A stretch of 64,000 nt of DNA from Xanthomonas cassavae CFBP 4642 (lineage in GTDB: Bacteria; Pseudomonadota; Gammaproteobacteria; Xanthomonadales; Xanthomonadaceae). The stretch covers positions 2,494,269-2,558,268 of the forward strand of contig NZ_CM002139.1 of the NCBI RefSeq assembly GCF_000454545.1, read 5' to 3'. The position numbers and the translations under genes were made by a program. Below the pieces are notes generated by a model. It was not told the origin of the DNA. It made no database searches and saw only the letters and a list, made by a program, of their open reading frames with translations. This document shows, piece after piece, positions 1 through 63,460 of this stretch. The stretch's first letter is position 1, and each line of letters opens with the position of its first letter.

Positions 1-41
1 CGCTTGCTGTTGTACTCCGCGTCGCCGAAGGTCAGTTGCAT
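1..41 (-). CDS. IS5-family transposase, N-terminal fragment (runs off window)
   Basis: Reading leftwards from 41, the frame begins MQLTFGDAEYNSKR, which I recognise as the usual N-terminus of IS1478-like IS5 transposases of Xanthomonas. An in-frame ATG two codons upstream (47) is an alternative start. Only 13 codons are inside the window, so nothing can be said about the DDE residues or whether the gene is intact. Confidence 0.6.
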   Translation of the reverse strand, partial: MQLTFGDAEYNSK

Positions 42-105
42 CGTCATCGTCCTGGTGCCTCTGTGCGATTGTCGCAGGATCAGGGGGAGTTGTTCAGAGT
101 TTCCC
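1..105 (-). mobile_element. End of an IS5-family insertion sequence cut by window edge
   Basis: The first 105 bases read, on the minus strand, as the left end of an IS5-like element. A terminal sequence GGGAAACTCTGAAC (reverse complement of about 92-105) is followed by a short leader and then the start of a transposase whose remainder lies outside the window. The terminus resembles that of the complete IS5-family element at 8894-10125 (GGGAACCTCTAAAAACC), so both belong to related groups. The other end and the target duplication cannot be seen. Confidence 0.6.
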
Positions 106-571
106 TAAGTCGGCCGGGATCTTGAGGAGGCCAGAGCCGAGGTCATTCCTGCGGGCGTTTCGGTTAGGCCTTGGTCCGCATTTGCCCGGAACGGACGGCG
201 TGCAGTCAGCGCCATCCATCTCCAGACACGCATTGTGATGCAGCGGTCGTGCCCGCCTGTCTGAGGCACGGGCGTCCTGGTCACGCTGCGCACGCGGCGA
301 ATTGATCCCGCCAGCGTCCGCCTGCCGATCGTGCAGCCTCCCTGCGTGCTGCTCCAAGAGCCGCTAACAGAACGTAGCGAGCAGTCGTCAGATGGCTGTG
401 GACGACGCACTCCGGATCTGCGTGTCCGATCGGTGCATGCCGACTCCAGGCACCGCCCACGCCCGGCTGCCGGCCGCGCAGTAGGTGTATTGGCCGCTCT
501 AAGACCAAGTGGCGATATGGCGCCCTGGGGGTTCGGCGTATATTGAGGCGTCCTTCCTGCCGCCTCGTCCC
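106..571. other. Gene-poor stretch upstream of the histidine kinase
   Basis: Between the IS end and the first kinase gene I see no convincing coding frame; the short frames on both strands lack family features. It holds one copy of a dispersed repeat (about 370-478, listed separately) and presumably the kinase promoter, which I could not pin down. Confidence 0.5.
370..478. repeat. Dispersed repeat, copy A
   Basis: The stretch starting CAGAACGTAGCGAGCAGTC and ending near GCCGCGCAG is matched over its full length, at roughly three-quarters identity by eye, by 19020-19136. Shared blocks include GTGGACGACGC and GGTGCATGCCGA. Both copies lie just outside genes (here before the kinase, there upstream of aat). 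The function is unknown. Confidence 0.6.
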
Positions 572-52377: not shown

Positions 52378-53382
52378 TCACGCGGCAGGTCGCTTGCGCC
52401 GCTCCTGGTAGATGCCCGGCACGCGCTCGCAGACCAGCCCCTGTGCCAGTAACGCAGATTCGATCGGTGCGGCGGCAGCGTCGTCGTAGCCGGTGCCGCT
52501 GCGCAACGCGACCACGTGCAGTCCGTCGCCGGCCAGTTCCAGCAGCAGGGACCGCTGCGCTTCGGCAGCGTGCGGCATGCTGCGACGGGAGGCGTCGCGG
52601 CGCGCCAGGTCGAGAACCGCATCGGGAATATCATCGCCGGCCACCAGCACGTCGGCCAGGTTCATCGCACGCAGCGCCTTCAAGGTGAGCAGGCCCGGAT
52701 CGCCCGGGCCGGTCCCCACCAGCTGCACGCTGCCACGCGCCGGTACCGCGCCGGCGTCGTCCAGCGCCGCCCTGAATGCAGCCTCGGCCGCCACCTCGTC
52801 GCCGGCCTGCAGCAGCACAGGCACCTGGCCGTCGATGACACGATCGAACCAGCGCCGGCGCCGGTTCATGTCCGGGAACTGGCTGCGGATGCGCTCGCGA
52901 TGCTGCGCGAACAGGCCGGCGAAGCGGCCCACCGATGCATCCAGCTCGCGCTCCAGCCGCTCGCGCAGGCGCCGTGCCAGCATCGGCGCGGCGCCTGCAG
53001 ACGAAATGGCGATCACCAGCGGGTCGCGGTCCACGATCGCCGGCACCTGATAGGAGGACAACTCGGCATCGTCCACCACGTTGACCAGGCGCTGGCGCGC
53101 GCCCGCGACGGCGGCAACGCGTTGGTTCAAGTCGGTGTCGTCGGTGGCCGCGACCACCAGCCACACCGTGTCGATCCAGGCAGGATCGAACTCGCCACCC
53201 AGTTGCTCGAAGCGACCGGCCTGCCTCAGGTCCGCCAGCTCGGGCGAGAGCGCCTGCGCGTACAGGCGGATCTGCGCACCGGCCTTGAGCAGCGCCAGCA
53301 CCTTGCGCGTGGCGACCTCGCCGCCACCGATCACCAGCACAGCGCGCCCCTGCAGATTGGCGAACAACGGGAACAACGGCAT
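52378..53382 (-). CDS. cysG: Siroheme synthase CysG with shortened methylase domain
   Basis: 334 residues. The N-terminal part (about 1-210) is a complete precorrin-2 dehydrogenase/ferrochelatase: GGGEVATRKVLALLKAGA, VVAATDDTDLN, ISSAGAAPMLARRLRERLE. The following SAM-dependent uroporphyrinogen methylase segment keeps its start (LVGTGPGDPGLLTLKALRAM) but is only about 118 residues instead of about 245. The second half is missing, so it cannot act alone. A separate cobA at 62684 can supply the methylase. Siroheme is needed by NirB nearby. It is divergent from nasT. ATG 53382 fits the family. Confidence 0.85.
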   Translation of the reverse strand: MPLFPLFANLQGRAVLVIGGGEVATRKVLALLKAGAQIRLYAQALSPELADLRQAGRFEQLGGEFDPAWIDTVWLVVAATDDTDLNQRVAAVAGARQRLVNVVDDAELSSYQVPAIVDRDPLVIAISSAGAAPMLARRLRERLERELDASVGRFAGLFAQHRERIRSQFPDMNRRRRWFDRVIDGQVPVLLQAGDEVAAEAAFRAALDDAGAVPARGSVQLVGTGPGDPGLLTLKALRAMNLADVLVAGDDIPDAVLDLARRDASRRSMPHAAEAQRSLLLELAGDGLHVVALRSGTGYDDAAAAPIESALLAQGLVCERVPGIYQERRKRPAA

Positions 53383-53466
53383 CGGCTCACTCCCAAAAAG
53401 ATGACTCGCACCAACGGCATGTTGCATGGCAACATCGGATCACGTCCACACGCCTCGCTGCCGCCA

Positions 53467-54039
53467 ATGCGTGTTTTGCTGGTCAACGATACCGAAAAGC
53501 TGATCGGGCAATTGCGCCAGGCGCTCACGCGCGCCGGCTACACGGTGCTCGACGATGTGGCCTCGGTGGGTGCCCTGCTGCATGCGGTACAGAGCCAGCA
53601 GCCGGATGTGGTGGTGATCGACGTGGATTCGCCCTCGCGCGACACCCTTGAGCAGTTGTCGATGCTGCACACGCATGCGCCGCGACCGGTGGTGATGTTT
53701 TCCGGCGATGGTGACGATGCACTGATCCATGCCGCGGTCGGTGCAGGTGTCACCGCGTATGTGGTCGATGGCCTGGCGCCGGCGCGGTTGGCGCCGATCG
53801 TGCAGGTGGCGCTGGCGCGGTTTGCGCACGAGAGCAGCATGCGCAAACGCCTGGACGACGTGCAGCAAGCCCTGCAGGACCGCAAACAGATCGATCGCGC
53901 GAAGGGTCTGCTGATGGAAAAACGCGGCCTCAGTGAGGCCGATGCCTATGCCGCGCTGCGCCAGCAGGCGATGAAGCAGGGCGTCAAGCTGGCCGAAGTG
54001 GCGCGACGCATCGTGGCCATGGCCGAATTGCTGGGATGA
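53467..54039 (+). CDS. nasT: ANTAR antiterminator NasT
   Basis: 190 residues from ATG 53467: a receiver domain (MRVLLVNDTEKLIGQLRQAL; Asp in VVVIDVDSPSR) and a C-terminal ANTAR RNA-binding domain (about 130-185; DRKQIDRAKGLLMEKRGLSEADAYAALRQQAM). NasT binds twin hairpins with hexanucleotide loops and allows read-through of a terminator. Such hairpins lie at 55664-55725. In-frame ATGs at 53401 and 53419 are alternatives. The gene precedes nasS by 4 bp. Confidence 0.9.
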   Translation: MRVLLVNDTEKLIGQLRQALTRAGYTVLDDVASVGALLHAVQSQQPDVVVIDVDSPSRDTLEQLSMLHTHAPRPVVMFSGDGDDALIHAAVGAGVTAYVVDGLAPARLAPIVQVALARFAHESSMRKRLDDVQQALQDRKQIDRAKGLLMEKRGLSEADAYAALRQQAMKQGVKLAEVARRIVAMAELLG

Positions 54040-54043
54040 ACCG

Positions 54044-55108
54044 ATGAGCCAAGCCGACCTTCCCGTGTTGCGCGTGGCCTACATGCCGCTGATCGATTGC
54101 GCGCCGCTGGTGGCTGCGCAGCGGCTGGGGCTGGACCACGCGCATGGCCTGCACCTGGATCTGCGACGGCAGGCCTCGTGGGCGGGCGTGCGCGATCGGC
54201 TGCTGGCGGGCGAGGTGGAGGCCGCCCACGCGCTGGCCAGCCTGGTGTACGCCATCGACCTGGGCATTGCCGGGCCGCAGTGCGCGATGGCCTTGCTGAT
54301 GACGCTTAATCACAACGGTCAGGCAATCACCCTGGCGCCTGCCTTGGCGCAGGCACTGGCAGACGGGCAGGCGTTGCCGCAGGCACTGGCCGGACTGGGG
54401 CGACGCGCGGTCTTCGCGCAGACCTTTCCCACCGGCACGCATGCGTTGTGGCTGTATTACTGGCTGGCCGCAGGCGGGGTGGACCCGATGCGCGATGTCG
54501 ATGTGCTCAGCATTCCACCACCGCAGATGCCCGACGCGCTGGGCAGCGGGCTGGTGGATGGCTATTGCTCCGGCGAACCATGGGCGGCCGTGGCACAGGC
54601 GCAAGGCGTGGGTGCACGGGTGATCCGCAGCGGTGAGCTGTGGCCCGGCCATCCGGAAAAGGTGCTGGCCTGCCGGCGCGAATTCGCTGCCCTGCAGCCG
54701 GACCTGACGCAGCAGCTGACGGCTTGCGTACTGGAAGCCTGCCGCTGGCTGGATGCTGGGCCGGACCACCGCGCACAGTGTGCGCAGTGGCTGGCCGAAC
54801 CGCAGCATATCGGAGTGTCGGCAGCGCATCTTGCTGCGTGTCTGGATGCCGAAACCGATGCGGCCAGCGGCGATGCGACGGCGCTGGCCTTTCATCGCGA
54901 TGGTGCGGTGAACATGCCGTGGCTGTCCGATGGCGAATGGTTCCTGGGCCAGTTCCAGCGGTGGGGGTGGCATGCCGTCCAGGACGAGGATATTGCGCGG
55001 TTACGGGATATCCATCGCCTGGACAACTACCGTCGTGCCGCAGCGCGCGTGGGTGTGGCGGTGGGCGACAGCGATCATCGCAGCAACCGCTTGCTCGATA
55101 CGCCGTGA
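54044..55108 (+). CDS. nasS: Nitrate/nitrite sensor NasS
   Basis: 354 residues, related to NrtA-type nitrate-binding proteins (PF13379 type) but with no signal peptide, so cytoplasmic. Typical segments are LRVAYMPLIDCAPLVAAQRLG and LGSGLVDGYCSGEPW. NasS holds NasT inactive without nitrate and frees it when nitrate binds. The nasT-nasS pair lies directly upstream of its target leader. Confidence 0.88.
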   Translation: MSQADLPVLRVAYMPLIDCAPLVAAQRLGLDHAHGLHLDLRRQASWAGVRDRLLAGEVEAAHALASLVYAIDLGIAGPQCAMALLMTLNHNGQAITLAPALAQALADGQALPQALAGLGRRAVFAQTFPTGTHALWLYYWLAAGGVDPMRDVDVLSIPPPQMPDALGSGLVDGYCSGEPWAAVAQAQGVGARVIRSGELWPGHPEKVLACRREFAALQPDLTQQLTACVLEACRWLDAGPDHRAQCAQWLAEPQHIGVSAAHLAACLDAETDAASGDATALAFHRDGAVNMPWLSDGEWFLGQFQRWGWHAVQDEDIARLRDIHRLDNYRRAAARVGVAVGDSDHRSNRLLDTP

Positions 55109-55634
55109 GGCGGCTGATGGCACCTTGTTGCGGTCTCCAGGCCTATGGATGTGCCTGACGTCTGTTGTTGGATTTGCGCATCTTCCGCAGGCGTCTGGAT
55201 TGATTGGACTGCGCGCTTGCAACGGTTGGCTTGCGACGCTGCTGATCCGAGGCGTGGCTGCAGGGCCCTTGCCCGCTCGAGAGGGTCGGTGTGCATGGGA
55301 CAAGCGATCTGCCGGCGGCTCTTGCCTGGGATCGCAAAGCATTGTGTGCTCGGCTAACTCGTCGAGGGAAAAATCGGAGTCTGGACCCATGGCTCGCTGA
55401 CATCAGCGCAGATAGGCAGATCGTTCGCGGTGCGAAAGATCGATGGCTTGGCCGCGAATGCCTGGCGTACCCAGCGCCGCAAGAACGCGCCGCACAGGTT
55501 TGGTGCATCGCTGCACGAAAGCCGGGAATCGGGCCATGGTTCCGGCCTTACTGATTCCACACTGCCCAGCCGCCTTATAATTAAATCACCAATTTTTCAA
55601 GTACTTATACCGCCGCGACGCGGGAGTGAACAAG
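55109..55634. other. Upstream region of the nitrate operon
   Basis: About 525 bp without a supported gene. The inverted repeat GTGCA-TCGC-TGCAC at 55503-55516, about 120 bp upstream of the sigma-54 promoter, is a possible activator site (NtrC sites are of the GCAC type), but its spacing differs from the usual NtrC sites. Its AT-rich segment (about 55573-55605) may be an IHF-type bend region; that is inference. Confidence 0.4.
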
Positions 55635-55651
55635 TTGGCATGGTGATTGCG
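55635..55651 (+). promoter_or_regulatory. Sigma-54 promoter of the nitrate assimilation operon
   Basis: TTGGCATGGTGATTGCG has GG at -24 and GC at -12 with exactly 10 bases between, matching TGGCACG-N4-TTGCA with two mismatches. Predicted transcription start near 55662, immediately before the first leader hairpin. NtrC control is expected. Confidence 0.8.
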
Positions 55652-55663
55652 TAGCAGTCATGT

Positions 55664-55725
55664 GCAGGTGCAACGGCGTGCCTGCAACAACACGTACACG
55701 GTGCAGCGGTTCAACGGCGATCCGC
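55664..55725 (+). ncRNA. ANTAR-target leader: two hexaloop hairpins (NasT site)
   Basis: Hairpin 1: GCAGGTGC-AACGGC-GTGCCTGC (55664-55685). Hairpin 2: GCGGTTC-AACGGC-GATCCGC (55706-55725, one T-T mismatch). Both loops are the identical hexanucleotide AACGGC, with A at position 1 and G at position 4 as expected for ANTAR-binding RNA. A 20-nt linker separates them. The terminator that follows is listed separately. Confidence 0.9.
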
Positions 55726-55738
55726 ACGCATCCAGGAC

Positions 55739-55781
55739 AACGGCGTCCTTCCGGTTTACCGGAGGGGCGCCGTTTTTTTTT
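55739..55781 (+). terminator. Leader terminator controlled by NasT
   Basis: AACGGCGTCCTTCCGG-TTTA-CCGGAGGGGCGCCGTT is a 16-bp stem with a tetraloop, followed by nine T. It lies between the ANTAR hairpins and the transporter gene, ending 25 bp before its ATG. Read-through, allowed by NasT, would be required to express the operon. Confidence 0.92.
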
Positions 55782-55806
55782 GACCATCGCATTCGAAGAG
55801 GTCTCT

Positions 55807-57015
55807 ATGCAGCGCTCGTTCTGGCGATCCGGGCACACGCCCACCTTGTTCGCTTCCTTCCTGTATTTCGACCTGAGTTTCATGGTGTGGTATCTGCTCG
55901 GTCCGTTGCAGGTGCCGATTGCGCAATCGCTGGGCCTGGATACCCAGCAGCGCGCCTTGATGGTGGCGGTGCCGATCCTGTGCGGGGCGGTGTTGCGCCT
56001 GGTGCTGGGCATGTTTGCCGATCGCACCGGCGCCAAGCGTGCCGGCATGGTCGCGCAGCTCGCCGTGATCGCTGCGCTGTTCGGTGCCTGGCAACTGGGC
56101 GTGAACAGCATGGGACAGGCGCTGCTGTTGGGTGTGCTGCTCGGTATCGCCGGTGCGTCGTTTGCGGTGGCATTGCCGCTGGCGTCGCGCTGGTATCCAC
56201 CCGAGCATCAGGGCACCGCGATGGGCATCGCCGGTGCAGGCAATTCCGGCACGGTGCTGGCGGCGTTGTTCGCCCCGATGCTGGCGGCCGCCTTCGGCTA
56301 TCAAAACGTGTTCGGGCTGGCGTGCATTCCGTTGGTGCTGACGCTGATCGTGTTTGCGTCGATCGCCAAGGAGGCACCGACACCGGTCGCACGCAAGCAG
56401 TGGTCCGACTACGGCCGCGTGCTGGTGGGCAACCGCGACGCGTGGCGCTTCATGTTCTTTTACGCGATCACCTTCGGAGGCTTTTCCGGCTTTGCCAGTG
56501 CGTTGCCGGGGTACTTCCACGACCAGTTCGATTTCGACGCGCGGACCGCGGGCTGGGCCACGGCGGCCTGCGTGCTGGCCGGCTCGGTGATGCGCCCGCT
56601 GGGTGGCGTGATTGCCGACCGTGTAGGCGGCACGCGTGCCTTGCTGGCGGTGTATCTGCTGGTGGCCACGCTGGTAGGCATTGCCGGGTTCGGTGCCGGC
56701 GGCGCCACCATCACGCTGGCGTTGTTCGTGCTGACGTTGTTGTGCCTGGGCGCCGGCAATGGTGCGGTGTTCCAGCTGGTGCCGCAGCGCTTCGGCCAGG
56801 ATATCGGGGTGATGACCGGCTTGATCGGCATGGCCGGCGGCATCGGCGGCTTCGCGCTTGCGGCCGGGTTGGGCGTGCTCAAGCAGCACACCGGCAGCTA
56901 TGCGTTGGGCATGTGGTTGTTCGCTGCATTCGCGCTTGGCGGCTGGGGCTTGCTAGCGGGCGTCAAGACCCAGTGGCGCAGCGAATGGTCCACCGCCGGC
57001 GCGGCGCGCGTCTGA
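55807..57015 (+). CDS. narK: Nitrate/nitrite MFS transporter (NarK/NasA family)
   Basis: 402 residues with 12 predicted membrane spans. NNP family signatures are present: AGAGNSGT in the fifth helix and GAGNGAVFQLVP in the eleventh helix. The second is followed by GVMTGLIGMAGGIGG. Also the MFS loop GMFADRTGAKRAG. It imports nitrate for the assimilation enzymes downstream. GAAGAGG precedes ATG 55807; the longer upstream frame runs through the leader hairpins and is not coding. First gene of the operon. Confidence 0.95.
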   Translation: MQRSFWRSGHTPTLFASFLYFDLSFMVWYLLGPLQVPIAQSLGLDTQQRALMVAVPILCGAVLRLVLGMFADRTGAKRAGMVAQLAVIAALFGAWQLGVNSMGQALLLGVLLGIAGASFAVALPLASRWYPPEHQGTAMGIAGAGNSGTVLAALFAPMLAAAFGYQNVFGLACIPLVLTLIVFASIAKEAPTPVARKQWSDYGRVLVGNRDAWRFMFFYAITFGGFSGFASALPGYFHDQFDFDARTAGWATAACVLAGSVMRPLGGVIADRVGGTRALLAVYLLVATLVGIAGFGAGGATITLALFVLTLLCLGAGNGAVFQLVPQRFGQDIGVMTGLIGMAGGIGGFALAAGLGVLKQHTGSYALGMWLFAAFALGGWGLLAGVKTQWRSEWSTAGAARV

Positions 57016-57037
57016 CATGTCGACAGGAATCCAGGCA

Positions 57038-59491
57038 ATGAAGCAACCCAGACTCGTCGTCATCGGCAATGGCATGGCCGGCATCCGCACCGTGGAGGAG
57101 CTGCTCAAGCTGATGCCGGGCATGTACCACATCACCGTGTTCGGTGCCGAGCCGCATCCCAACTACAACCGCATCCTGCTGTCGCCGGTGCTGGCCGGCG
57201 AGCAGGAGTTCGACGACATCGTGTTGAACCGGTTGCAGTGGTACCGCGACAACGGCATCCATCTGCATTTGAACACCGAAGTCACCCGCATCGATCGCGT
57301 GCGCCGCCGGGTAATTGCCGCCGACGGCACCGAGGCCGAGTACGACCGCCTGCTGATCGCCACCGGCTCGGTGCCGTTCGTGCTGCCGATCCCGGGCAAC
57401 GAGCTGAAGGGCGTGATCGGATATCGCGATATCCAGGACACCCGCACCATGATCGACACCGCGCGCAGCAAGCAGCATGCGGTGGTGATCGGTGGCGGCC
57501 TGCTTGGTCTGGAAGCGGCCAATGGCTTGAAGGTGCGCGGCATGGACGTGACCGTGGTGCACCTGGCCGGCTGGCTGCTGGAACGTCAGCTCGACCCGGT
57601 TGCGGGCAATCTGCTGCAGCAGGCACTGCGCGCACGTGGCCTGGAATTTCGCTTGAACACCGCAACCAGCGCGCTGCTCGGCAACGCGCAGCGCGAAGTG
57701 ATCGGGGCCAGATTCGCCGATGGCAGCGAAATCCCGGCCGATCTGGTGGTGATGGCCGCCGGCATCCGCCCCAACACGCGCCTTGCCGAAGAAGCCGGCA
57801 TCCATTGCTCGCGCGGCATCGTGGTCAACGACAGTCTGCAGAGCTTCGATCCGCGCGTGTACGCGGTGGGCGAGTGCGCAAACCATCGTGGTATCGCCTA
57901 CGGCCTGGTGGCGCCGCTGTTCGAGCAGGCCAAGGTCTGCGCCAACCACCTGGCGCAGTTCGGCATCGGCATCTATCGCGGCTCGGTGGCGTCGACCAAG
58001 CTCAAGGTCACCGGCATCGATCTGTTTTCGGCCGGCGATTTCATGGGCGGCGATGGCTGCGAGGAGATCGTGTTGTCCGATCCGGCCGGCGGGGTCTACA
58101 AGAAGCTGGTGATCCGCGACGACGTGCTGGTGGGAGCCTGCCTGTATGGCGACACCAGCGATGGCGGCTGGTATTTCAAACTGCTCAAGGACGGCACGCC
58201 GATCCAGGCGCAGCGCGATCAGCTGATCTTCGGCGAAAGCGCGTTGGGCGATTCGGGCACCGGCGGCCAGGACCGCGCCAGCGTGATGGCCGACAGCGAC
58301 GAGGTCTGCGGCTGCAACGGCGTGTGCAAGGGCACCATTGTCAAGGCGATCAGCGAGCAGGGCCTGTTTACCGTCGATGAAGTGAAGAAGCACACCAAGG
58401 CAGCGAGTTCCTGCGGCTCGTGCACCGGGCTTGTAGAGCAGATTCTGATGAACTGCCTGGGCTCCAATTTCCAGGAAACCCCAAAGACCAAGGCCGTCTG
58501 CGCGTGTACCGACCTGAGCCACGGCGATGTGCGCCGCGCCATCCGCGAGCACAAGCTGCTCACCCATGCGCAGGCCTACGCCTTCATGGAATGGCGCACG
58601 CCCAACGGTTGCGCCACCTGCCGGCCGGCGATCAATTACTACATGCTCTCGACCTGGCCGCACGAAGCCATCGACGACCCGCAGTCGCGTTTCATCAACG
58701 AACGCGCGCACGCCAACATCCAGAAGGACGGCACCTTCTCGGTGATTCCGCAGATGAAGGGCGGGGTGACCAATGCTGGTGAGCTGCGCCGCATTGCCGA
58801 TGTGGCCGACAAGTACGCGGTGCCGATGGTCAAGGTCACCGGCGGCCAGCGCATCGATCTGCTCGGGGTCAAGAAAGAAGATCTGGTGGAAGTGTGGCGC
58901 GATCTGGGCATGCCGTCGGGCCATGCCTACGGCAAGTCGATCCGCACGGTGAAGACCTGCGTGGGCAGCGAGTTCTGCCGCTTCGGCACCCAGAACAGCA
59001 CGCAGATGGGTATCGACCTGGAAACCATGCTGGCCAATATGTGGAGCCCGCACAAGGTGAAGCTGGCGGTGTCAGGCTGCCCGCGCAACTGCGCCGAATC
59101 CGGCATCAAGGACGTGGGCATCATCGCGGTGGATTCGGGTTGGGAGCTGCACGTTGGCGGCAATGGCGGCATCAAGACCGAGGTGGCGCGTTTCCTGGTC
59201 AAGGTGAGCACCGCCGAGGAAGTGCGCGAGTACACCGGCGCATTTTTGCAGCTGTACCGAGAGCAGGCCTATTACCTGGACCGCACGGTGCACTACATCG
59301 CGCGCGTGGGCCTGGACTACATCCGTGCGCAGGTGGTGGACGATGCGGCAAACCGGCGAGCGCTGTACGAGCGCCTGCTGTTTTCGCTGGAAGGCCTGGT
59401 CGATCCGTGGAAGGCACGCATCGCCGGCGAGCGTCGCCAGGAGTATCAACCGCTGCGGATCGCAGCGCCCGCGGCAACGGTGGAGGAATGA
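57038..59491 (+). CDS. nirB: Assimilatory nitrite reductase large subunit NirB
   Basis: 817 residues from ATG 57038 (AGGA nine bases upstream); ATG 57017 is an alternative. FAD/NADH-binding pyridine nucleotide-disulfide domain at the N-terminus (IGNGMAGIRT). A Fer2_BFD [2Fe-2S] domain has Cys pairs CGCNGVC and CGSCTG. The sulfite/nitrite reductase half has the siroheme and 4Fe-4S Cys in TCVGSEFCRFGTQNS and SGCPRNCAESG. Reduces nitrite to ammonium with NADH. Stop overlaps nirD (ATGA). Needs siroheme from the cysG/cobA enzymes nearby. Confidence 0.96.
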   Translation: MKQPRLVVIGNGMAGIRTVEELLKLMPGMYHITVFGAEPHPNYNRILLSPVLAGEQEFDDIVLNRLQWYRDNGIHLHLNTEVTRIDRVRRRVIAADGTEAEYDRLLIATGSVPFVLPIPGNELKGVIGYRDIQDTRTMIDTARSKQHAVVIGGGLLGLEAANGLKVRGMDVTVVHLAGWLLERQLDPVAGNLLQQALRARGLEFRLNTATSALLGNAQREVIGARFADGSEIPADLVVMAAGIRPNTRLAEEAGIHCSRGIVVNDSLQSFDPRVYAVGECANHRGIAYGLVAPLFEQAKVCANHLAQFGIGIYRGSVASTKLKVTGIDLFSAGDFMGGDGCEEIVLSDPAGGVYKKLVIRDDVLVGACLYGDTSDGGWYFKLLKDGTPIQAQRDQLIFGESALGDSGTGGQDRASVMADSDEVCGCNGVCKGTIVKAISEQGLFTVDEVKKHTKAASSCGSCTGLVEQILMNCLGSNFQETPKTKAVCACTDLSHGDVRRAIREHKLLTHAQAYAFMEWRTPNGCATCRPAINYYMLSTWPHEAIDDPQSRFINERAHANIQKDGTFSVIPQMKGGVTNAGELRRIADVADKYAVPMVKVTGGQRIDLLGVKKEDLVEVWRDLGMPSGHAYGKSIRTVKTCVGSEFCRFGTQNSTQMGIDLETMLANMWSPHKVKLAVSGCPRNCAESGIKDVGIIAVDSGWELHVGGNGGIKTEVARFLVKVSTAEEVREYTGAFLQLYREQAYYLDRTVHYIARVGLDYIRAQVVDDAANRRALYERLLFSLEGLVDPWKARIAGERRQEYQPLRIAAPAATVEE

Positions 59492-62683: not shown

Positions 62684-63460
62684 ATGTCCGTCATCCCTTC
62701 CTGCGCGCGTGATGTGGTGTTGTTGTCTGCCGGTCCCGGCGATCTGGAGCTGCTGACCATCAAGGCAGTCAAGGCGCTGGCAGTGGCGCAGGTGCTGCTG
62801 CTCGACGATCTGGCCAATCCCAAGATCGTGGAGCTGGCACCGCAGGCGCGCGTGATCCGCGTCGGCAAGCGCGGCGGCTGCCGCTCCACGCCGCAGGAGT
62901 TCATCTGCCGGCTGATGCGGCGCTATGCATTGCAGGGTCTGCGCGTGGTGCGCGTCAAGGGCGGCGATGCCTTGTTGTTCGGGAGGGCTGGCGAAGAGAT
63001 CGACTTCCTGCGTCGCGCCGGTGTCGGTGTGCAGGTGATCAATGGGGTCAGCGCCGCGTTCGCCGCCGCCGCTTCGCTGGACGTGTCGCTGACGCACCGC
63101 GACCATTGCCATGGCATCACCTTCGTCACTGCGCATACGCACGACCACGGCGAGCCGAATTGGGGTGCACTGGCCGCCAGTGGCACCACGCTGGGCATCT
63201 ACATGGGCCTGCGGCGTGCGGACGCGCTGGCGACGGCGCTGCTGGCGCATCTGCCGGCCGCTACGCCGGCAGCCATCGTGCAGGCAGCCACACGTCCCGA
63301 GCAACAACGTCGCCTCACCACGCTGGGCGAACTTGGCGCCGCCGCAGCGGCGCTGCTGCCAGGCCTGCCGACCTTGCTGTTGGTTGGCGATGCGCTCGCA
63401 CACGCGTCGGCCGCCTGCGACGATCATTGTGCTGCCGTGTTGGAACAGGCAGTGGGATAG
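62684..63460 (+). CDS. cobA: Uroporphyrinogen-III C-methyltransferase (CobA/SUMT)
   Basis: 258 residues, full-length methylase: GPGDLELLTIKAVKAL, VKGGDALLFGRAGEE, VINGVSAAFAAAA, then GHGV-like segments. It makes precorrin-2 for siroheme, replacing the missing half of the methylase domain in the cysG-like gene at 52378. It is the last gene of the nitrate operon, 35 bp after the reductase. Confidence 0.9.
   Translation: MSVIPSCARDVVLLSAGPGDLELLTIKAVKALAVAQVLLLDDLANPKIVELAPQARVIRVGKRGGCRSTPQEFICRLMRRYALQGLRVVRVKGGDALLFGRAGEEIDFLRRAGVGVQVINGVSAAFAAAASLDVSLTHRDHCHGITFVTAHTHDHGEPNWGALAASGTTLGIYMGLRRADALATALLAHLPAATPAAIVQAATRPEQQRRLTTLGELGAAAAALLPGLPTLLLVGDALAHASAACDDHCAAVLEQAVG

What the first reader, a model, noticed from the sequence alone, without database searches (positions are those of the whole stretch)
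55635..55781. Complete nitrate riboregulator: sigma-54 promoter, twin AACGGC hexaloops, terminator
The predicted start (about 55662) falls two bases before hairpin 1. Both hairpins carry the identical loop AACGGC (A1, G4), the hallmark of ANTAR-binding RNA. A 16-bp terminator with nine T follows 13 nt later and ends 25 nt before the transporter ATG. The trans factors nasT and nasS are the adjacent upstream genes. Everything needed for nitrate-gated antitermination sits in 150 bp, and I do not know of this leader being described for Xanthomonas.
Basis: partly seen in the sequence, partly recalled or inferred. Interest (0 to 1): 0.75.

Follow-up and report, generated by a model that had tools for sequence, protein, structure and literature searches.

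The report
Three-hairpin nitrate switch before narK

Summary
In detail: a sigma-54 promoter (55636-55650), two AACGGC hexaloop hairpins and a 16-bp terminator lie where stated, between nasTS and narK-nirBD-nasA-cobA. It is incomplete. A third AACGGC hairpin (55734-55749) lies in the supposed gap and runs into the terminator's 5' arm; the two cannot coexist, so it is the natural antiterminator. An NtrC-like site (55492-55506) lies upstream. None of 20,000 shuffles gives three such hairpins. Three could be placed in 32 of 41 non-Pseudomonas narK leaders (partly found by sequence); hairpins 1 and 2 covary. In 119 family genomes the 12 strong model hits (four of them model members) all fall among the 16 genomes with an ANTAR protein. 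In mechanism it is the known NasS-NasT/NalA (Rfam P11-like) nitrate antitermination leader, in a triple-hairpin form. Pseudomonas P11 shows a candidate middle hairpin keeping A1/G4 in 25 of 30 loci read, so the triple form may be general. My searches showed no paper on it in Xanthomonas or on a triple form, but four key papers were not held. Which hairpins pair under NasT, and what hairpin 1 does, is inference. No wet evidence.

The parts
53467..54039 (+). nasT: receiver + ANTAR RNA-binding domain, the only ANTAR protein found in this genome
   Evidence: Pfam ANTAR 5.6e-21 and Response_reg 8.7e-14; one ANTAR match in the whole genome; the name rests on domains and context
54044..55108 (+). nasS: presumed nitrate/nitrite sensor that holds NasT
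   Evidence: Pfam NMT1_2 1.8e-76; the name rests on family and position, no NasS-specific model hit
55492..55506 (+). NtrC-like enhancer site GCAC-N7-GTGC
   Evidence: A GCAC-N7-GTGC within 300 nt upstream of the sigma-54 element in 41 of 80 leaders (37 of 41 non-Pseudomonas incl. window, 4 of 39 Pseudomonas/Stutzerimonas); 0.009 expected per 300 nt; at -144 to -146 in the window and L002-L012, at other distances elsewhere. NtrC consensus recalled
55636..55650 (+). sigma-54 promoter TGGCAT-N5-TTGC, predicted start 55662
   Evidence: sequence; a sigma-54 element scored in 79 of 80 related leaders
55663..55686 (+). Hairpin 1 (H1), hexaloop AACGGC, loop at +11
   Evidence: -13.3 kcal/mol; covariation 0.630 vs 0.293 shuffled, 0/500; loop G4 in 26/26 and A1 in 25/26 distinct rows, register chosen by pairing
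55706..55725 (+). Hairpin 2 (H2), hexaloop AACGGC, loop at +52; predicted to extend by an outer helix to 55700-55732
   Evidence: -6.8 kcal/mol, -12.9 extended; covariation 0.628 vs 0.225 shuffled, 0/500; its A1/G4 was a search condition
55734..55749 (+).
   Evidence: folds when the transcript reaches 55749, displaced by 55769; found in 33 of 33 rows, but by a sequence pattern
55739..55774 (+). Intrinsic terminator stem-loop, 16 bp; its 3' arm pairs with the H3 loop and 3' arm
   Evidence: 91.9% of cells paired in 26 aligned leaders
55773..55781 (+). Terminator T-run, nine T
55807..57015 (+). narK-type nitrate/nitrite MFS transporter, first gene controlled
   Evidence: TIGR00886 1.6e-79, 267.7 bits, below its cut-off of 311.7; relatives align from residue 1
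57017..59491 (+). nirB, nitrite reductase large subunit
   Evidence: TIGR02374, 918 bits
59494..59835 (+). nirD, nitrite reductase small subunit
   Evidence: TIGR02378, 86.6 bits
59850..62648 (+). assimilatory nitrate reductase (nasA/nasC-like)
   Evidence: Best hit is formate dehydrogenase alpha TIGR01591 5.7e-156, then NF041323 and NF047855 nitrate reductases (4.4e-148, 8.5e-142), all below cut-off; role from context
62684..63460 (+). uroporphyrinogen-III C-methyltransferase (cobA), siroheme supply
   Evidence: TIGR01469, 222.9 bits

Best explanation
A NalA/P11-type nitrate antitermination leader with three candidate NasT-docking hairpins. Under nitrogen shortage NtrC and sigma-54 start transcription at about 55662. 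H1, H2 and H3 fold as the RNA emerges. Without nitrate, NasS holds NasT; the weak H3 (5 bp) is displaced by the 16-bp terminator, whose 3' arm pairs with H3's own AACGGC loop, and transcription stops near 55781. With nitrate, NasS lets go of NasT; NasT, most likely as a dimer on H2 and H3, keeps H3 folded, the terminator cannot close, and the narK-nirBD-nasA-cobA operon is read. H1, at a fixed distance from the promoter, is an extra NasT site that most likely loads NasT early or raises occupancy. Shown here: sequence, folds, conservation, covariation, co-occurrence. Inferred from studied relatives: NasT/NasS action, nitrate and NtrC dependence. Inferred with little support: which two hairpins one dimer holds, and the role of H1.
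For: Three ANTAR-rule hairpins, 0 of 20,000 shuffles. Three hairpins placed in 32 of 41 non-Pseudomonas loci and the window. The strongest hexaloop hairpin of any loop sequence in +3..+40 sits at +9..+12 in 74 of 80 leaders. Covariation of H1 and H2 against shuffles and slid controls. In L024 the H3 loop changes to AATGGC and the terminator 3' arm changes with it. Stepwise fold: H3, then terminator. In 119 family genomes the 12 strong model hits lie in the 16 genomes with an ANTAR protein. One ANTAR protein and one strong leader hit in this genome. NtrC-like site. Rfam P11 matches full length, 40.6 bits, E 6.9e-8, below its gathering score of 70. Literature, passages: NasT freed from NasS binds leader RNA (PMC3795266); the NasT-controlled nirBD leader NalA is driven by sigma-54 and NtrC (PMC12830290).
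Against: No RNA-seq, binding or reporter data. H3 was located by a sequence pattern and H2 by A1/G4/C-G and spacing, so their loop and spacing conservation is partly built in; H3's stem hardly varies. Terminator covariation is weak: 0.179, but 0.141 and the same 17 cells when slid by -2. Linkers are ambiguous: H2-H3 is 8 nt if H2 ends at 55725, but about 1 nt with the outer helix of the predicted fold; across 33 rows, contiguous extension gives H2-H3 -2 to 14 nt in 32 and H1-H2 8 to 26 nt in 31. Eut leaders have 5-12 nt (3 and 14 failed in one; PMC3369931), so the H2-H3 pair is not settled. Two weak hits (E 0.004, 0.009) are in genomes without an ANTAR protein; four ANTAR genomes lack a hit. 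Nine of 41 non-Pseudomonas loci lack the triple form.
Confidence: 0.83

Rival explanations
1. One reading: H1 and H2 are the NasT site, and NasT acts on a separate downstream terminator.
For: H1 and H2 have the stronger stems; an H1-H2 linker of 19 nt (13 with the outer helix) lies within the 2-25 nt accepted for actinobacterial ANTAR RNAs (PMC8164766, passage).
Against: H1 and H2 do not overlap the terminator, H3 does; in 35 of 39 Pseudomonas/Stutzerimonas narK leaders the filter finds a closely spaced pair whose second member has the H3 place (loop spacing 22-25).
Confidence: 0.08
2. H1 makes the terminated RNA a NasT decoy: after the terminator swallows H3, H1 and H2 remain and bind NasT, giving negative feedback, as reported for an RNA that sequesters EutV (EutX, name recalled).
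For: The terminated RNA keeps two intact A1/G4 hexaloops; the sequestration paper is in the reference list of PMC7496416.
Against: No trans effect tested; compatible with the best explanation rather than exclusive.
Confidence: 0.2
3. H1 is only a 5'-end stabilising stem-loop, not a NasT site.
For: It starts at +2, a good place to shield a 5' end; in L017 a stem persists while the hexaloop rule is lost.
Against: Loop A1 (25/26), A2 and G4 (26/26) are kept across distinct rows while positions 3, 5 and 6 vary, the ANTAR rule rather than a stable-loop rule; closing C-G in 26/26.
Confidence: 0.15
4. The leader chiefly makes a trans-acting small RNA, as P11 is described in Pseudomonas.
For: P11 is called a small RNA that regulates the nitrogen assimilation operon (PMC12080996, passages).
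Against: The terminator is conserved in the 26 leaders aligned directly before the operon, which suits cis control; no trans target was sought.
Confidence: 0.05

Closest known systems
NalA, the NasT-controlled nirBD leader (seen in passages of the review PMC12830290), and Rfam RF00625 P11
   Same: sigma-54/NtrC start, hexaloop hairpins, last hairpin overlapping the terminator, NasS-NasT control of nitrate assimilation; P11 matches this leader end to end
   Different: Here the leader precedes narK; loops mostly AACGGC; first loop at +11 rather than +19..28; scores below Rfam's threshold. That P11 and NalA are the same RNA is my inference, not read.
Rfam RF03032 narK RNA
   Same: Lies before narK in 10 of 10 Pseudomonas/Stutzerimonas loci scanned; a second hexaloop hairpin is in the sequence but not in the model's structure line
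   Different: Two hairpins; the window scores 22.9 bits against a gathering score of 43.2
K. oxytoca nasF leader / NasR
   Same: Two-hairpin ANTAR RNA with terminator, nitrate-responsive (PMC7496416, passages)
   Different: One-component NasR, not NasS-NasT; two hairpins
E. faecalis eut leaders / EutV
   Same: A1/G4 hexaloops, second hairpin mutually exclusive with terminator (PMC3369931)
   Different: Dual hairpin; ethanolamine signal

Membership tests
ANTAR-target RNA (dual hairpin) | Two hairpins with hexaloops, A1 and G4 | tested here: met
   Met by H1, H2 and H3 in the window; one hairpin more than the definition
ANTAR-target RNA (dual hairpin) | Second hairpin overlaps, and excludes, a terminator | tested here: met
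   H3 against terminator
ANTAR-target RNA (dual hairpin) | Linker 5-12 nt (eut) | tested here: inconclusive
   H2-H3 8 nt with the 7-position H2 stem, about 1 nt with the predicted outer helix; H1-H2 19 or 13 nt
ANTAR-target RNA (dual hairpin) | ANTAR protein in the same genome | tested here: met
ANTAR-target RNA (dual hairpin) | Bound by the ANTAR protein | not testable with these tools
   Needs a binding assay
Rfam RF00625 P11 | Score at or above the gathering threshold of 70 bits | tested here: not met
   40.6 bits, full length; not filed as a P11 member
Rfam RF03032 narK RNA | Score at or above 43.2 bits | tested here: not met
   22.9 bits
NasS-NasT nitrate assimilation system | nasT, nasS and nitrate/nitrite assimilation operon together | tested here: met
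   by domain families and order
NasS-NasT nitrate assimilation system | NasS releases NasT on nitrate | not testable with these tools
   Reported for Paracoccus (PMC3795266, passages), not tested here

The most novel reading that the evidence does not exclude
NasT leaders are built as three-site arrays, not the dual hairpin by which ANTAR RNAs are defined. The promoter-proximal hairpin is a separate functional site, held at +9..+12 in narK-type leaders, that loads NasT on the nascent RNA as polymerase leaves the sigma-54 promoter and passes it to the H2-H3 pair, or leaves a two-hairpin decoy on the terminated RNA. Pseudomonas P11 shares the triple form through a middle hairpin whose loop keeps A1 and G4.
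Probability: 0.33. Interest if true: 0.58.

Novelty: new variant of a known kind. Interest (0 to 1): 0.4.

Why it matters
ANTAR RNAs are defined and searched for as dual hairpins. A conserved extra hairpin in narK leaders of Xanthomonadaceae and Betaproteobacteria, and perhaps in Pseudomonas P11, would change the search models and raises a testable question: what does a third site do? It gives a concrete nitrate switch for Xanthomonas and suggests that two Rfam families, P11 and narK RNA, share one mechanism (P11's link to nitrogen assimilation is already in print). P11 is also the small RNA in a debated C. elegans inheritance story (PMC12080996, passages), so its anatomy has readers outside this field.

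Tried and rejected
Rfam at gathering threshold found nothing at the leader (only sX9 elsewhere); sub-threshold hits to plasmid antisense RNAs, Scr6925 and others look like terminator matches and were set aside. More NasT targets in this genome: five further model hits at E 0.45 to 7.5; read on the right strand, L113 and L114 show no ANTAR-rule hairpin and L115, L116 and L117 one each, none a pair, so none is claimed. A relaxed IHF-like motif at 55584 is too weak to list as a part. My first automatic choice of H1 took the wrong register in eight rows and was replaced. One search read minus-strand loci unreversed; redone. The filter misses H2 in the window and some relatives because of the stem mismatch. 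The H2 of L018 was placed by hand, and the 32 loci were chosen after looking. That the promoter-locked place is general: it holds for narK leaders (76 of 80) but not for P11, whose first loop is at +19..28. Chance hexamers: rejected. Coding explanation (the longest narK frame starts at 55660): rejected, because leader lengths vary out of frame among relatives and the terminator would lie inside it.

Literature limits: papers on NalA in P. putida (PMC10783516), A. vinelandii nasAB (PMC3426680), P11 and nitrogen assimilation (PMC11387622) and the narK RNA motif (10.1093/nar/gkx699) are not held, so 'not described' is unproven.

Full report
What is there. The window very likely belongs to a Xanthomonas: its narK protein is 93-99% identical to those of 12 Xanthomonas records found (L002-L012, L014; four others, L013, L015, L019, L023, are at 77-79%), and a Xanthomonas sRNA, sX9, lies at 362-438. 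Between nasS and narK lie, in order, an NtrC-like site (55492-55506), a sigma-54 element (55636-55650), hairpins H1, H2 and H3 with the same loop AACGGC (loops at +11, +52 and +78 from the predicted start 55662), a terminator (55739-55774) with nine T, and the narK ATG at 55807. Downstream follow narK, nirB, nirD, a molybdopterin nitrate reductase and cobA.

More than chance. Of 20,000 dinucleotide shuffles of +1..+95, none gave three hairpins of the ANTAR type and 28 gave two. The fold is far more stable than shuffles (z -4.88).

Conservation. In 32 of the 41, plus the window, three hairpins were placed: H1 loop at +10..12; H2 at +46..53 except L025 (+163) and L032 (+66); H3 at +67..79 except L018 (+132), L025 (+188) and L032 (+90). 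What was built in: H1 was chosen by pairing alone, but within +9..+13; H2 had to have A1, G4 and a C-G closing pair 21-27 nt before H3 (L018 by hand); H3 was found by a sequence pattern. So H1's loop sequence is an unforced result, its place is supported separately (best hexaloop hairpin of any loop sequence in +3..+40 at +9..+12 in 74 of 80 leaders; the six others are L012, L026, L032, L035, L046, L067), and the loop conservation of H2 and H3 is partly forced. The nine loci left out: L017 (H1 loop lost), L026 (no sigma-54 element scored, no H1), L046 (no H1), L033 and L034 (H1 and H3, no H2), L027, L029, L030, L036 (Paraburkholderia; H1 plus a hairpin near the ribosome site). In 26 distinct H1 rows the loop has A1 in 25, A2 in 26 and G4 in 26, while positions 3, 5 and 6 vary.

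Covariation. H1: score 0.630 against 0.293 in shuffles, 34 cells changed on both sides against 11.4, 0 of 500 as high; slid controls at most 0.161; the count of pairs with a two-sided change is not significant (96 of 500). H2: 0.628 against 0.225, 0 of 500; slid at most 0.165; pairs with a two-sided change 349 of 500 and pair types 29 of 500 are not clear. Terminator: 0.179 against 0.126, 0 of 500, 91.9% of cells paired against at most 64.5% when slid, but the slide by -2 gives 0.141 and as many two-sided cells (17), so its covariation is weak. The tool warns that related sequences can exceed shuffles without structure.

H3 and the terminator. H3's loop and 3' arm lie in the terminator's 5' arm. 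Folding the transcript stepwise, H3 is present when the RNA ends at 55749 to 55765 and gone at 55769. H3 alone is -5.6 kcal/mol, the terminator (15 of its 16 pairs) -30.2; forcing H3 raises the leader from -60.2 to -47.0. In L024 the H3 loop reads AATGGC and the terminator's 3' arm carries the matching change, the one U-A at that pair among 26 rows (21 C-G, 4 unpaired). So the loop that NasT should read is the stretch that closes the terminator.

Which pair? With H2 ending at 55725 the H2-H3 linker is 8 nt and H1-H2 19 nt. The predicted fold adds an outer helix to H2 (55700-55704 with 55728-55732), leaving about 1 nt to H3 and 13 to H1. Over 33 rows, letting stems run on with one mismatch gives H2-H3 -2 to 14 nt in 32 (66 in L018) and H1-H2 8 to 26 nt in 31 (37 and 130 in the others). 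Eut leaders have 5-12 nt, and 3 or 14 nt failed in one (PMC3369931, passages). So H2-H3 is preferred here mainly because H3 excludes the terminator; it is not settled by spacing.

Trans factor. The genome encodes one ANTAR protein and gives one strong hit to a covariance model (R1) built from 26 leaders including the window's; the next is at E 0.45. In 119 genomes of the family R1 gives 12 strong hits (E 1.7e-9 or better), all in the 16 genomes with an ANTAR protein; two weak hits (E 0.004, 0.009; G047, G091) are in genomes without one, and four ANTAR genomes (G015, G040, G062, G092) have no hit. In 398 genomes of the phylum, 45 have a hit at E 0.01 or better; of the 29 hit loci L118-L146 given and read, 29 show a sigma-54-like element and at least one ANTAR-rule hairpin after it, most only two.

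Promoter distance. In 76 of 80 narK leaders an ANTAR-rule loop begins at +9..+12 (searched +9..+13); the rate of such loops upstream of the promoters is 0.0033 per position, 0.017 expected in five positions. The loci are related, so these are not 76 independent events. In 35 of 39 Pseudomonas/Stutzerimonas narK leaders this hairpin is also the first of a close pair (22-25 nt loop to loop; the filter missed one member in L062, L063, L065, L067), whereas in the Xanthomonas type the two places are filled by H1 and H2.

Enhancer. GCAC-N7-GTGC occurs within 300 nt upstream of the sigma-54 element in 41 of 80 leaders (window + 79 loci; L026 left out): 37 of 41 non-Pseudomonas, 4 of 39 Pseudomonas/Stutzerimonas; 0.009 expected per 300 nt from the rest of the same loci. 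In the window and L002-L012 it lies at -144 to -146 with a varying centre; elsewhere the distance ranges from -22 to -234. The NtrC consensus is recalled.

Known relatives. Rfam P11 covers this leader from promoter to terminator (positions 1-139 of 139) at 40.6 bits, below its gathering score of 70; narK RNA gives 22.9 of 43.2. In 15 relatives scanned, narK RNA was above threshold before narK in 10 of 10 Pseudomonas/Stutzerimonas loci, P11 further downstream in 7 of 10, and 0 of 5 other loci had either. A review states that the nirBD leader NalA is made from a sigma-54 promoter with NtrC and that NasT binding lets transcription pass (PMC12830290, passages). An eLife paper states that P11 regulates the PA14 nitrogen assimilation operon (PMC12080996, passages). 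That P11 and NalA are one RNA is my inference. The ANTAR rules are from PMC3369931 (abstract, passages, section 10) and PMC7496416 (passages): dual hairpin, A1/G4, C-G closing pair, second hairpin exclusive with the terminator.

A triple form in P11 too? In 79 Pseudomonadaceae-like genomes (family of G175, unnamed) P11 was found in 51 (41 above threshold). Of the 30 loci I read (of the 41), 26 have a middle hairpin CCCG-hexaloop-CGGG; its loop has A1 and G4 in 25 of 26 (11 distinct loops: G4 and A5 in all, A1 in 10) while positions 2, 3 and 6 vary. Four (L168, L173-L175) lack it. Against it: I picked this hairpin out of several hexaloop stems listed in the same stretch; its closing pair is G-C, not the C-G preferred by NasR; and in five loci (L157, L158, L161, L163, L166) loop letters 1 and 6 could pair and leave a tetraloop. 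If real, the triple form is not special to Xanthomonas.

Mechanism. Shown: the anatomy, the H3/terminator exclusion in silico, conservation and co-occurrence. Inferred from studied systems: NasS releases NasT on nitrate (PMC3795266, passages); NasT binds the RNA; NtrC drives the promoter. A NasR dimer binds two hairpins about tenfold better than one (about 1 against 12 uM; PMC7496416, passages). Not shown: what H1 adds. It may load NasT, act as a decoy on the terminated RNA, or only protect the 5' end; its loop conservation argues against the last.

Novelty. Ten searches; none of the titles shown was on a Xanthomonas NasT leader or a triple-hairpin ANTAR RNA, but searches showed 20 of 106 and 20 of 51 papers, mostly off the subject. 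In PMC3369931 'three hairpin', 'third hairpin' and 'Xanthomon' have 0 occurrences in the main text; in PMC8164766 'three stem' and 'third stem' 0. Supplements were not read, and four key papers were not held. Verdict: a known kind of switch in a triple-hairpin variant; useful, moderately interesting, not a new system.

Noticed in passing
L147-L167, L169-L172, L176: Pseudomonas P11 carries a middle hairpin CCCG-hexaloop-CGGG whose loop keeps A1 and G4 in 25 of the 26 loci that have it (30 read), a possible third NasT site in a much-studied small RNA; in five of them a tetraloop is possible instead.
   Followed up: partly
L037, L040, L045, L060, L064, L070, L075: Seven of the 10 Pseudomonas/Stutzerimonas loci scanned carry both Rfam narK RNA and P11 a few kb apart; both look like NasT-type ANTAR leaders, though Rfam holds them as separate families with no clan shown.
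   Followed up: partly
L027, L029, L030, L036, about 65 nt before narK: Paraburkholderia narK leaders have the promoter-proximal hairpin and then an AATGGC/AATGAC hexaloop hairpin close to the ribosome-binding site; I saw no clear terminator by eye; perhaps ANTAR control of translation (in L027 and L036 the loop is AATGAC).
   Followed up: no
L033, L034: Two Paraburkholderia leaders keep the first and last hairpins, 70 nt apart, but no middle one was found.
   Followed up: no
window 55660-57015: The longest ATG-started narK reading frame begins at 55660 and runs through the leader and terminator; an automatic start call there would hide the leader.
   Followed up: yes
window 52378-53427 (-): The CysG-like protein has a C-terminal methylase domain matching only positions 3-117 of 212, while a fuller cobA lies at 62684-63460: the short domain may be covered by the second gene.
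   Followed up: no
window 362-438 (-): Xanthomonas sRNA sX9 (Rfam RF02228, 57.6 bits).
   Followed up: no
genome handle G092, contig C289: A same-genus genome has an ANTAR gene but no leader hit and no narK match; its assembly is fragmented (about 330 contigs), so loss is unproven.
   Followed up: no
window 55584-55596: Weak IHF-like motif, found with a relaxed pattern, between the enhancer-like site and the promoter.
   Followed up: no
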